50,593 nucleotides of DNA from Rhodanobacteraceae bacterium (GTDB lineage Bacteria > Pseudomonadota > Gammaproteobacteria > Xanthomonadales > Rhodanobacteraceae). The stretch's first letter is position 1. Each line of letters begins with the position of its first letter. The notes beneath the pieces were generated by a model that was not told the origin of the DNA, ran no database searches, and saw only the letters and a program-made list of their open reading frames with translations. This document shows positions 7,186-14,403 of this stretch, piece by piece. A program made the translations under genes and the position numbers. The stretch lies in contig JAACZU010000020.1 of NCBI GenBank assembly GCA_009996615.1, forward strand, positions 1 through 50,593. Direction: 5' to 3'.

Positions 7186-10100
7186 ATGAACGAGTCCGAG
7201 CGCGAGCAACCAACCGATTGCGCAAACCAGCGTTCCTTGCTTGAGGTCGTTGCGCGAACGGGCGCCCCACCGGCTCGCGACGCGTACACGCATACCCACC
7301 CGTTCGACCCGCGCAGCCTCGACCAGTTGCATCGGCGCGCCCGGCGGCTGGGCCTTACGTTCGACCGCCTGGGCCACGCGGCACTGGCCTTGGTCGATTC
7401 GCGCCTGACCGGCAACGCGCGCGTCGCGCTCGGCGGCCCGCCACGGGCGATCGACATCGCGGTACCGGCCAGCGCGGACCTCGATGAATGGCTGCAGGCA
7501 CCCGTCGATGAATCGGCTGCATCGCCCAGCGCGATCGGCCGCTGGGCCGCCGACGCAGCTGCCGCCCAAGCCGCGCAGGACACACTGGCTTGGTGGCTCG
7601 ACGCCGATGGCCTGCACGCGCGCAACCCGGCAGCGTTCGACGTGAACGCGCTCGACCTGCTCGCCCGTGCGCTGCACACCGTGCTGCTCGGCCTGGCCAG
7701 CGCCACGCGCCTGGAGCAGGTTGCCGCGCTGGATGCGACGGAGCGGCAGCGCCTGCTGGCCGAGTGGAATGCGACCGCGGTGCCGCGCCGCGCAGGCGAC
7801 ACCGTGCACGGTCTGTTCTCCGAGGTCGCGCGCCGTCATCCCGCGCGCACCGCGCTGGTCGACGCGACAACGCGGCTCGACTACGAGACGCTCGACGCGC
7901 GCGCCGAGCGCGTCGCCGCCGGGTTGCGCGCGGCCGGCGTCGAACCCGGCGCGCCGGTCGGACTGCTGCTGGAGCGTTCGGCCGAGGCGATAGTCGCCGT
8001 GCTCGGCGTCCTCAAGGCGGGCGGCGCCTACCTGCCGCTCGATCCCGGCCATCCGCCCGAGCGCCTCGCATTCGCGCTCGCCGACGCGCAGGCGCCACTG
8101 GCGATCGTGCGCCGCGACGCCGTGACCGAGCTGCCCTCGGGCGGCACGCGCCTGATCGCGCTCGAAGACCTCGAGGCCGGCGCAGACGCGCTCGAGGCGC
8201 CCGCGCTCGACGGCGCCGCGCTGGCCTACGTGATGTACACCTCCGGCTCGACCGGCACGCCCAAGGGCGTGGAAATCCGCCATCGCTCGATCATCCGCCT
8301 CGTGCGCGAGGTCGACTACGTAGAGTTCGGCGACGCCCCCTGCCTGCTGCACGCCGCGCCGCTCGGCTTCGACGCCGCGACGCTGGAGATCTGGGGCGCG
8401 CTGCTCAACGGCGGCACCGTCGTGGTCCACGCCGAGCGCATCCCGACCGCGCGCGGCCTGGCCGCGACGATCGCGCGCGAGCAGGTGCGCATCGCCTGGC
8501 TCACCGCGGCGCTGTTCAACGCGATCGTCGACGAGGATCCGCAGGCGCTGGCCGGGCTGGCGCAACTGCTGACCGGTGGCGAGGCGCTGTCGGTGCCGCA
8601 CGTGCGCAAGGCGCTCGCGGCGCTGCCGGGGACGACGCTCATCAATGGCTACGGCCCGACCGAATGCACGACGTTCGCGGCCACGTACCGCATCCCGCGC
8701 GAGCTGCCGCCCGACACGGCCTCGATCCCGATCGGCCGGCCGATCGCCGACACCACGCTGTACGTGCTCAACGCGCGCGGCGAGCCGGTGCCGGTCGGCG
8801 TCGCCGGCGAGCTCTACATCGGCGGCGCCGGCGTCGCGCGCGGCTACCTCGGCCGTCCCGCGTTGACCGCCGAGCGCTTCGTGCCCGACCCGTTCGGCGC
8901 GCCCGGCGCGACGCGCTACCGCACCGGCGACCTCGTGCGCTGGCGTGCCGACGGCGTGATCGAGTTCATCGGCCGGCTCGACAACCAGGTCAAGATCCGC
9001 GGCTTCCGCATCGAGACTGGCGAGATCGAGGCCGCGCTGAAGGCCGTGCCGGGCGTGCGCGACGCCGCTGTCATCGCGCGCGAGGACCGGCCCGGCCTGA
9101 AGCGGCTGGTCGCCTACTACGTCGAGGCCGCGCCGCTCGCGCCGGAGGCGCTGCGCGCCGCGCTCGCACGCGCGCTGCCGGAGTTCATGCGGCCGGCGCT
9201 GTACCTGCGCCTGGACGCGCTGCCGGTGACCGCGAACGGCAAGCTCGACCGCCGCGCGCTGCCGGTACCGGACACGCATCGGCCCGAGCTCGCGGTCGCC
9301 TATGCGGCGCCGCGCGGCGCGAGCGAAACCGAGGTTTGCGCACTGTTCGCCGACTTGCTCGGCCTCGACCGCGTCGGCCGCGACGACAACTTCTTCGAGC
9401 TCGGCGGCAATTCGCTGCTGGCCGTGCGCGCGGTTGCCGCGCTGGACGCCGGCCGCGAGCGTCTGGGCGTGACTGACTTCTTCCGCGCGCCGACGCCGGC
9501 CGGTCTCGCCGCGCTGCTCGACCACGGCAGCGGCGCCGCGCTCGACGCCGCGCGCATGGCGCCGCACGCGCGCGGCGATGCGGCCGAGCCGATCGCGATC
9601 ATCGCGATGGCCGGCCGTTTCCCCGGCGCCGCCGACGTCGAGACGTTCTGGCAGAACCTGTGCGACGGCCGCGACACGATCACGCAGTTCCGCCCCGACC
9701 AGCTCGATCCGGCGATCCCGGCCGAACTGCGCGAGGACCCGGCCTACGTCGCCGCGCGCGGCGTGCTCGACGGCGTCACCGAGTTCGACGCGGCGTTCTT
9801 CGGCATCACGCCGCGCGAGGCCGAACTGATGGATCCGCAGCAGCGGATCTTCCTGGAGCTGTGCTGGGAATGCCTCGAACGCGCCGGCCACGTGCCTGAC
9901 GCGCACGCGGCGCCGGTCGGGATCTTTGCCGGCATGTACAACGCCAGCTATCGCGAGCACCACGTCGCCGCCCACCCCGAGCGCGTGGCCCAGCTCGGCG
10001 CGTTCCAGGTCATGCTCGCCAACGAGAAGGACTACATCGCCACGCGCGTCGCGCACAAGCTGAACCTGACCGGTCCGGCGATCAGCGTGCACACCGCCTG

Positions 10101-13100: not shown

Positions 13101-14403
13101 GCGCCTGTGGGACCTCGACGGCAACGAATACGTCGATGCGCTGAACGGCTTCGGCATGAACCTGTTCGGCTGGCAGCCGCCGTTCGTGCTGGAGGCGGTG
13201 CGCCGCCAGCTCGAGCTCGGCTACGAGATCGGCCCGCAGCACCCGCTCGCCGGCGAGGTCGCGCGGCTGGTCTGCGAGCTGACCGGCTTCGACCGCGCCG
13301 GCCTGTGCAACACCGGCTCCGAGGCGGTCATGGGCACGATCCGCATCGCGCGCACGGTGACCGGACGCGAGACGCTGGTGATCTTCGCCGGCTCCTACCA
13401 CGGCATCTTCGACGAGGTCATCGTGCGCGGCACGAGGAAGCTGCGCTCGGTGCCGGCCGCGCCAGGCATCCTGCGCAACACCGCCGAACACGTGCTGGTG
13501 CTCGACTACGGCACGCCCGAATCGCTGGCTATCATCCGCGAGCGCGCGCACGAGATCGCCGCGGTGCTGGTCGAGCCGGTGCAGAGCCGGCGCCCGGACT
13601 TCCAGCCGCGCGAGTTCCTGCACGAGCTGCGCGCGATCACGCGTGAGGCCGGCGCGCTGCTGATCTTCGACGAGGTCGTGACCGGCTTCCGCGCGCATCC
13701 GCGCGGCGCGCAGCACGTGTTCGGCGTCGATGCCGACCTCGCCTCGTACGGCAAGGTCGTCGGCGGCGGCTTCCCGATCGGCGTGATCGCCGGCAAGCGC
13801 GACTACATGGACGCGCTCGACGGCGGCCAGTGGCAGTTCGGCGACGACTCGGTGCCGACCGTCGGCGTGACCTATTTCGCCGGCACCTTCGTGCGCCATC
13901 CGCTCGCGCTCGCCGCGGCCAAGGCAGTGCTGGAACACCTGCGCGCGGAAGGGCCGGCGCTGCAGCAGCGCCTGAACGCGCGCACCAGCGCGTTCGCCGA
14001 CGAACTGAACGCGTACTGCCGCGAGGTTGGAGCGCCGGTCGCGATCGTGCACTTCGCGTCGGTGTGGAAGGTCGCCTTCGGCGAGGACCATCCGCTGCAG
14101 GACCTCCTGTTCGCAATGATGCGCAGCCGCAGCATCCACATCCTCGACAACTTCCCGTGCTTCTTCACCACCGCGCACGCCGAGGCCGACTTCGTCGCGA
14201 TCGCGCAAGCGTTCAAGGACTCGATTGCCGAGTTGCAGGAAGCCGGCTTCCTGCCGTGCCGCCGCGACGCCGCCAGCGACGCCGTCGACGCGACGCGGCC
14301 GCCGGTGCCCGGCGCGCGGCTGGGCAAGGATCCGGACGGACGGCCGGCGTGGTTCGTGCCGAACCCGGACGCCCCCGGCAAGTACCTGAGGGTCGACGCA
14401 TGA
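7186..14403 (+). CDS. Hybrid NRPS-PKS: (C remnant)-A-T-KS-AT-ACP-aminotransferase
   Basis: A 2405-residue megasynthase. Residues 1-190 resemble the C-terminal half of a condensation domain, with no HHxxxDG. The A domain (~200-720) has [10 protein letters not shown] near 350, G-Y-G-P-T-E near 488, Y-R-T-G-D and catalytic K686; its pocket code read by eye (D396, A397, L400, W438 and on) is DALWLGGTFK, valine-like. T1 has S743 (L-G-G-N-S). KS (~800-1225) has C972 (T-A-C-S-T-S), H1108 and H1148. AT has S1409 (G-H-S-V-G-E) and H1505-A-F-H, a malonyl-specific signature. ACP has S1744 (L-G-L-D-S). After a Pro/Ala/Gln linker, a class III PLP aminotransferase (~1890-2360) has D2162 and K2190, like the AMT domains of mycosubtilin and microcystin synthases. 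There is no KR. Predicted product: a beta,gamma-diamino acyl chain from valine and malonate. Confidence 0.95.

What the first reader, a model, noticed from the sequence alone, without database searches (positions are those of the whole stretch)
7186..14403. Assembly line predicted to build a vicinal diamino (aminostatine-like) acid
The order A(Val-like)-T-KS-AT(malonyl)-ACP-AMT, with no ketoreductase, would extend valine by two carbons and then aminate the beta-keto group, giving a 3,4-diamino-5-methylhexanoyl unit. AMT domains in mycosubtilin and microcystin synthases act after fatty or aryl starters; here the starter is itself an alpha-amino acid, so two adjacent amines result. Such a unit could be a transition-state mimic for aspartic proteases or a metal ligand.
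Basis: partly seen in the sequence, partly recalled or inferred. Interest (0 to 1): 0.78.

Follow-up and report, generated by a model that had tools for sequence, protein, structure and literature searches.

The report
Valine-started enzyme line, predicted diamino acid
A bacterial enzyme assembly line looks built to lengthen valine by two carbons and add a second amine next to the first, and relatives of it often sit beside surface-sugar genes; no product has been seen, so this is a prediction.

Summary
ORF 7186-14403 encodes A-T-KS-AT-ACP-AMT with no ketoreductase. The catalytic motifs are present, the starter code DALWLGGTF is valine-like, and the AMT is closest to mycosubtilin MycA AMT. A 3,4-diamino-5-methylhexanoyl unit passed to a glycine module is therefore a well-supported prediction, not a demonstrated product.

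It is not a one-off. Of 80 named relatives (capped list), 68 show an A domain upstream, 67 of them in the full order. Of 61 readable starter codes, 43 are Val, 12 Pro and 6 other. Val and Pro would both give adjacent amines. The domain order itself was catalogued in 2013 (PMC3870968 Table 2).

My literature searches did not turn up the setting. In related genomes the line tracks a polysaccharide glycosyltransferase, EpsB_2 (23 of 25 carriers, 11 of 56 non-carriers). Many loci add a hydrolase pair, one with an invariant Cys nucleophile. I infer that the aminoacyl product is transferred, perhaps onto a glycan. Against this, Variovorax loci lack sugar genes and no exosortase is linked. The protease-inhibitor and metal-ligand ideas have no support here.

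The parts
7186..7785 (+). N-terminal ~200 aa of the PKS: probable remnant of a condensation domain without the HHxxxDG motif, so the starter amine is probably left free
   Evidence: by eye; no HHxxxDG in frame upstream of A1 in 67 of 68 named loci with an A domain (exception L138)
7816..9243 (+). Adenylation domain A1, code DALWLGGTF (Val-like)
   Evidence: PF00501 5.2e-87, PF13193; code from alignment
9301..9525 (+). Carrier domain T1 (LGGNSL at residue 739); extent approximate
   Evidence: PP-binding, two stretches; motif
9586..10713 (+). Ketosynthase, Cys-His-His motifs present
   Evidence: PF00109, PF02801; motifs; conserved in relatives
11140..11973 (+). Acyltransferase, HAFH (malonyl-type; motif meaning recalled)
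   Evidence: PF00698
12328..12525 (+). ACP (LGLDSL)
   Evidence: PF00550
12916..14262 (+). Aminotransferase domain (AMT), class III, Lys in SYGK
   Evidence: PF00202 3e-44; MycA AMT 6kfm 7.5e-125; Lys 102 of 102 rows
14400..20810 (+). NRPS gene C-A-T-C-A*-T; its start overlaps the PKS stop (ATGA)
15867..17285 (+). A2, code DILQLGLVW (glycine-like)
18990..20399 (+). A3, degenerate: YTSNTAGTVRA in place of the A3 motif; no AMP-binding_C match there
20807..21565 (+). hydr2-like alpha/beta-hydrolase; the elbow (as aligned) has no Ser or Cys (GVRAGA)
   Evidence: TIGR03101 74 bits, below its 203-bit cut-off
21568..22344 (+). hydr1-like alpha/beta-hydrolase with a Cys nucleophile motif (GICAA); start codon uncertain
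   Evidence: TIGR03100 55 bits, below its 168-bit cut-off
5040..5954 (+). Cupin_8/JmjC-like protein with an HxD...H pattern; possible tailoring oxygenase
6000..7013 (+). second Cupin_8/JmjC-like protein, homologue of the first
23933..25708 (-). EpsB_2-type polyprenyl glycosylphosphotransferase, the only one over cut-off in this genome
   Evidence: TIGR03013 539 bits, cut-off 393; own-genome search

Best explanation
A two-protein PKS/NRPS line. A1 activates L-valine and loads T1 (inferred from the code). KS takes valyl from T1 and condenses it with malonyl from the ACP to give 4-amino-5-methyl-3-oxohexanoyl-ACP (inferred from domain order). With no ketoreductase present, the AMT transaminates the 3-oxo group, as MycA AMT does on its beta-ketothioester, giving 3,4-diamino-5-methylhexanoyl-ACP (inferred). 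C1 joins it to glycine loaded by A2. C2 then joins the chain to whatever sits on T3; A3 is dead here, so T3 would be loaded in trans, most simply with glycine by A2. The hydr1/hydr2 pair then takes the chain off T3; the Cys nucleophile in hydr1 suggests acyl transfer rather than plain hydrolysis. In the Lysobacterales the acceptor may be a surface polysaccharide or its precursor. What is shown is the sequence anatomy, its conservation and the gene association; every chemical step is inferred.
For: Domain content and motifs. Val code (literature passages). D235 and both A-domain lysines kept in nearly all A1 rows; AMT Lys 102 of 102 rows, ACP Ser 98 of 98, KS His 90 of 90 (rows include duplicates of at least four genomes). 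Order A-T-KS-AT-ACP-AMT in 67 of 68 named loci with an A domain, the 68th lacking a detected T. Starters Val 43, Pro 12, other 6 of 61 readable codes, all read as amino-acid codes and with at least 5 Val/Pro changes on the AMT tree. No intact C domain before A1 in 67 of 68. Next-module code has Gln at position 278, as in glycine codes, in 64 of 72. Hydrolase pair in 38 of 67 named loci with 9 kb or more downstream; hydr1 Cys and His in 46 of 46 rows. EpsB_2 association 23 of 25 versus 11 of 56, Fisher 6e-10; within the family 21 of 22 versus 6 of 27, 1.3e-7; within 25 kb in 15 of 18 same-contig cases.
Against: No product and no assay. Fisher values ignore shared ancestry. EpsB_2 lies on other contigs in 5 of the 23 co-occurring genomes, and 48-196 kb away in 3 more. 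Burkholderiales loci of the Variovorax type carry no EpsB or other sugar genes, so the glycan link is not general. No exosortase is linked. The hydrolases fall below the TIGRFAM cut-offs, and the pair was found in none of the Dyella- and Luteibacter-type loci. Next-module codes such as DIMQVGGVY, DMPQWGLVW and DISDITGVW are not secure glycine codes; 5 of 72 look like Ser. L150 has no detectable A, KS or AT upstream. The two cupin proteins could hydroxylate the unit, so the final residue may differ.
Confidence: 0.72

Rival explanations
1. A1 loads an alpha-keto or alpha-hydroxy acid (2-oxoisovalerate), as in the cyanobacterial Athmu-type lines, so the product has a single amine.
For: A-domain-selected alpha-keto-acid starters before an aminotransferase are described in PMC13252402 (passages). 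The starter is predicted, not measured.
Against: The Asp that binds the alpha-amine (D235) is kept and the code is Val-type; those cyanobacterial lines carry a KR in the loading module, which is absent here; Val alternates with Pro in relatives, and proline has no easy keto counterpart.
Confidence: 0.06
2. The AMT acts on another chain, or is silent, and the 4-amino-3-oxo intermediate goes on or cyclises to a tetramic acid, giving no vicinal diamine.
For: 4-Amino-3-oxoacyl thioesters are known to cyclise readily (recalled).
Against: AMT sits directly after the ACP and before C1; all checked catalytic residues are invariant in 102 rows; the module is kept from Lysobacterales to Burkholderiales.
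Confidence: 0.08
3. The line makes a free, diffusible metabolite (inhibitor, signal or chelator), and the polysaccharide genes are neighbours by accident or by shared regulation.
For: Variovorax-type loci have the core without sugar genes and with an RND transporter gene nearby. No transfer enzyme has been shown.
Against: EpsB_2 co-occurrence and closeness across the family; relatives carry GT2, GT4, Wzy, deacetylase and PaaK-like genes around it; hydrolases resemble those named for polysaccharide/exosortase systems.
Confidence: 0.4
4. The unit is a siderophore or metal ligand, or a protease transition-state mimic.
For: 1,2-diamines can bind metals; aminostatine analogues are used as protease inhibitors (both recalled).
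Against: No receptor, export or iron-regulation gene was seen next to the line; the only TonB receptor seen is about 21 kb beyond the NRPS, past housekeeping-type genes. Nothing in the locus points to a protease.
Confidence: 0.08

Closest known systems
A-CP-KS-AT-CP-PLP1 proteins in Milano et al. 2013 (PMC3870968, Table 2: Pedobacter heparinus C6XWU5; Thiorhodococcus drewsii G2E5C9; Salinisphaera shabanensis F7QBN5 with an added C)
   Same: Same domain order and an Aminotran_3 domain after the second carrier; two of the predicted products have Gly next to Mal (section read)
   Different: Listed by prediction only ('Nrp-Mal-Gly-Pk'); no valine or vicinal-diamine reading, no product and no sugar-gene context given in the sections I read
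Mycosubtilin synthase MycA AMT module (PDB 6kfm, 6kfr, 6kfu)
   Same: Best match of the AMT among solved structures (7.5e-125); the MycA AMT is described as aminating a beta-ketothioester on the ACP with Gln as donor (passage)
   Different: MycA uses a fatty starter (recalled); here an A-T pair loads an alpha-amino acid
Cyanobacterial Athmu-type lines (floridanemamide, pahayokolide-like; PMC13252402, passages)
   Same: A-domain-selected starter, PKS extension, aminotransferase, then NRPS
   Different: Their starter is an alpha-keto acid reduced on the line, with a monooxygenase; one amine results. The three starter strategies in the passages I saw do not include an alpha-amino acid
Polysaccharide loci of the EpsB_2 / XrtA-PEP-CTERM type
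   Same: EpsB_2 over cut-off; relatives of hydrolases 1 and 2 of that system
   Different: Hydrolases below cut-off; no linked exosortase

Membership tests
PKS/NRPS module with embedded class III aminotransferase (MycA-type) | Aminotran_3 domain directly after an ACP and before a condensation domain | tested here: met
PKS/NRPS module with embedded class III aminotransferase (MycA-type) | acts on an ACP-bound beta-ketothioester | not testable with these tools
   inferred from KS-AT-ACP with no KR
PKS/NRPS module with embedded class III aminotransferase (MycA-type) | fatty-acyl or aryl starter | tested here: not met
   A1-T1 with an amino-acid code sits directly before KS
A-CP-KS-AT-CP-PLP1 architecture (PMC3870968) | that domain order on one chain | tested here: met
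Statine-forming modules | ketoreductase giving a 3-hydroxy group | tested here: not met
   no KR in Pfam scan; AT-ACP gap too short
Alpha-keto-acid starter (Athmu-type) line | loading module with KR and non-amino-acid starter pocket | tested here: not met
   no KR; D235 kept and Val code
XrtA/PEP-CTERM exosortase polysaccharide system | EpsB_2 glycosyltransferase in the locus | tested here: met
   539 bits, cut-off 393
XrtA/PEP-CTERM exosortase polysaccharide system | linked exosortase | tested here: not met
   only one weak PF09721 match in the genome, on another contig
XrtA/PEP-CTERM exosortase polysaccharide system | hydrolases 1 and 2 over their cut-offs | tested here: not met
   55 and 74 bits against 168 and 203

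The most novel reading that the evidence does not exclude
A nonribosomal line makes a vicinal-diamino acyl-glycyl group that a cysteine-type alpha/beta-hydrolase transfers onto a surface polysaccharide, so that an assembly line decorates a glycan with a cationic, paired-amine peptide; Val and Pro starters are exchanged between lineages while the paired amines are kept.
Probability: 0.25. Interest if true: 0.8.

Novelty: new variant of a known kind. Interest (0 to 1): 0.58.

Why it matters
If the prediction holds, it gives a genetically encoded route to free 3,4-diamino acids from ordinary amino acids, with a natural series of starter swaps (Val, Pro, others) on one aminotransferase lineage that shows which parts can be exchanged. 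It would also show an aminotransferase domain handling an alpha-amino-beta-keto substrate, which is prone to cyclise. If the product is put on a polysaccharide, it joins two fields (assembly-line peptides and surface glycans) that are usually studied apart, and makes the function of the hydrolase 1/2 pair testable.

Tried and rejected
Considered and rejected or set aside: (1) an alpha-keto-acid starter, because D235 is kept and there is no KR; (2) a true exosortase (XrtA) locus, because no exosortase is linked; (3) a siderophore, because there is no receptor near the line; (4) paenilamicin galantinamic acid as a precedent: passages of PMC9054821 name the residue but say nothing of an aminotransferase, so it is not used as support; (5) PPTase in the window: no match of a relative's PPTase better than E 0.15.

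Led nowhere: the exact ten-letter code was in no held paper. Searches for a 3,4-diamino or aminostatine natural product gave 3 papers, none on this subject by title and abstract start. Searches joining exosortase or exopolysaccharide with NRPS/PKS gave nothing on point in the listings, nor did Variovorax plus aminotransferase or vicinal diamine plus PKS. Of the 24 papers listed I opened one. Structure prediction was tried with the AMT alignment and was never accepted because the machine was busy, so no model was made and no fold search was run.

My first regex test of motifs passed only 17 of 89 loci because the patterns were too strict; the alignment test replaced it. In one search rows with gaps or other letters were: KS Cys 1 of 90, AT Ser 3 of 94, first HAFH residue 3 of 94; C1 second His 5 of 109; C2 second His 2 of 84; A1 Asp 2 of 82.

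Counts over all 100 loci include duplicates: at least G396/L075, G382/L083, G377/L084 and G392/L085 are the same contigs by length, so the main counts are given for the 80 named loci.
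Full report
What is there. The window is one whole contig (G000:C20) of a 3.9-Mb genome. By AMT tree the nearest named rows are Dokdonella, so the host is probably a Lysobacterales bacterium; this is inference. ORF 7186-14403 has the domains A, T, KS, AT, ACP and AMT in that order, with a short N-terminal piece that looks like the end of a condensation domain, and no reducing domain. Motifs are intact. The next gene, 14400-20810, starts inside the PKS stop codon (ATGA) and reads C-A-T-C-A*-T. Two small alpha/beta-hydrolase genes follow at 20807-21565 and about 21568-22344; the first again overlaps the stop before it.

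Starter and extender. The code of A1 is DALWLGGTF (nine positions). Passages in three papers give near-identical codes as Val: DAFWLGGTFK (PMC9113097), DALWMGGTFK (PMC3943440) and DALWIGGTFK among Val-type codes (PMC12283262). The AT has HAFH, the malonyl motif (recalled). A2 reads DILQLGLVW, close to the glycine-type code DILQLGMIWK named in PMC12283262. A3 is degenerate: its A3 motif is YTSNTAGTVRA and Pfam finds no AMP-binding_C in it.

Aminotransferase. Its best solved relative is the AMT of mycosubtilin synthase MycA (6kfm, 7.5e-125; glutamate semialdehyde aminomutases follow at 3e-51). A passage of PMC3870968 describes MycA AMT as passing an amine to the beta-ketothioester on the ACP. 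The PLP lysine and two further checked residues are the same in 102 of 102 rows.

Relatives. In the family-level sample, 25 of 81 genomes had an AMT match at E 1e-70 or better; in a class-wide sample, 10 of 369. The named scan kept the best 80 of 556 relatives: Dyella, Luteibacter, Dokdonella, Rhodanobacter, Frateuria, Lysobacter, Pseudoxanthomonas, Luteimonas and, in Burkholderiales, Thiomonas, Variovorax, Xenophilus, Ideonella and others. Of these 80, 11 have no A domain because the contig starts too near the AMT, 68 have an A domain upstream, and 1 (L150) has none despite 10 kb of upstream sequence. In 67 of the 68 the order is A-T-KS-AT-ACP-AMT; in one no T was detected. An intact C-domain motif precedes A1 in 1 of 68 (L138), so the starter amine is usually free. 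Codes were read in 61: 43 Val, 12 Pro, 4 DILIIGGIM, 1 DAWYLGFCD, 1 DISDITGVW. On a quick AMT tree, with many weak forks, at least 5 Val/Pro changes are needed. The five more distant Lysobacterales lines G378, G381, G383, G386 and G410, and also G380, have Pro codes. AMTs without an A domain upstream (G116, G330, G409, G367, G177) fall outside this group, with long branches. The next-module code could be read in 72 of 80: 64 have Gln at position 278, 39 are DILQ....W, 5 look like Ser.

Chemistry. Valine plus one malonyl unit, with no ketoreduction and with amination of the 3-oxo group, gives 3,4-diamino-5-methylhexanoyl; proline gives 3-amino-3-(pyrrolidin-2-yl)propanoyl. Both keep two adjacent nitrogens.

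Release. The final A domain is intact in 18, degenerate in 10 and absent in 41 of 69 named loci that could be classed, by a motif rule. Loss while T3 stays suggests loading of T3 by another A domain. In 17 of the 41 no T was detected by the search, which may be a limit of the search. The hydrolase pair is present in 38 of 67 named loci with at least 9 kb downstream, in the order hydr2-hydr1 within 400 bases in 36 of the 38. hydr1 has a Cys at the nucleophile elbow and a conserved His in 46 of 46 aligned rows; hydr2 shows Arg or other residues at the elbow as aligned, so it may be a non-catalytic partner. Both resemble, below cut-off, the 'exosortase A system-associated' hydrolases 1 and 2.

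Setting. EpsB_2 (TIGR03013), a polyprenyl glycosylphosphotransferase of polysaccharide loci, lies 9.5 kb from the AMT and is the only one over cut-off in the genome. Over 81 genomes it is present in 23 of 25 with the AMT and 11 of 56 without (Fisher 6e-10); within the family 21 of 22 and 6 of 27 (1.3e-7). These tests do not correct for kinship. Of the 23, 18 have both on one contig, 15 of them within 25 kb; the other three are 48, 54 and 196 kb apart, and five are on different contigs. Among 60 named loci with about 10 kb upstream, 23 show an EpsB-like match; Variovorax-type loci do not, and the Variovorax locus examined (L139) has TilS-like, phosphatase and RND genes around it instead. In the Dyella-like relative G403 the neighbours include an epimerase, a GMC oxidoreductase, a PPTase, GT2, deacetylase, Wzy, a PaaK-like ligase and two GT4 genes, and many of these recur in other relatives. 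No exosortase is linked here, so the TIGRFAM name should not be read as an exosortase system.

Comparison with print. The architecture is in Table 2 of PMC3870968 (sections 7 and 8 read). A 2026 preprint (PMC13252402, passages) groups cyanobacterial beta-amino polyketide starters into alpha-keto acid, aromatic acid and fatty acyl; an alpha-amino acid is not among the groups shown. My ten literature searches found no paper on this family or its sugar-gene setting in the listings; subscription journals are mostly not held, so this is weak evidence of absence.

Verdict. It is a new variant of a known kind, interesting for its alpha-amino-acid starter, its starter swaps and its association with polysaccharide genes.

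Noticed in passing
window 5040-5954 and 6000-7013: Two homologous Cupin_8/JmjC-like genes directly before the PKS; cupin relatives recur near the PKS in many Lysobacterales loci. Possible tailoring hydroxylases.
   Followed up: partly
window 21568-22344: hydr1-like alpha/beta-hydrolase with a Cys in the nucleophile elbow, invariant in 46 rows, next to a partner without an evident nucleophile.
   Followed up: partly
window 18990-20399: Terminal A domain of the NRPS is degenerate here and absent or degenerate in 51 of 69 classed named relatives.
   Followed up: partly
window 1291-3930: Fusion of a GINT1_N-like part (PF24793) with a GT2 glycosyltransferase.
   Followed up: no
window 22348-23061 and 23040-23936: A DnaJ-domain protein and a protein with no Pfam or NCBIfam match at the default cut-off; relatives of both recur near EpsB in other loci.
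   Followed up: no
L118, L120, L121, L128 (Lysobacter): Starter A domains with code DILIIGGIM, whose substrate I could not assign.
   Followed up: no
L111 (Thiomonas): The line sits behind Wzz-like, ParA/AAA_31 and UDP-GlcNAc 2-epimerase genes, another polysaccharide setting.
   Followed up: no
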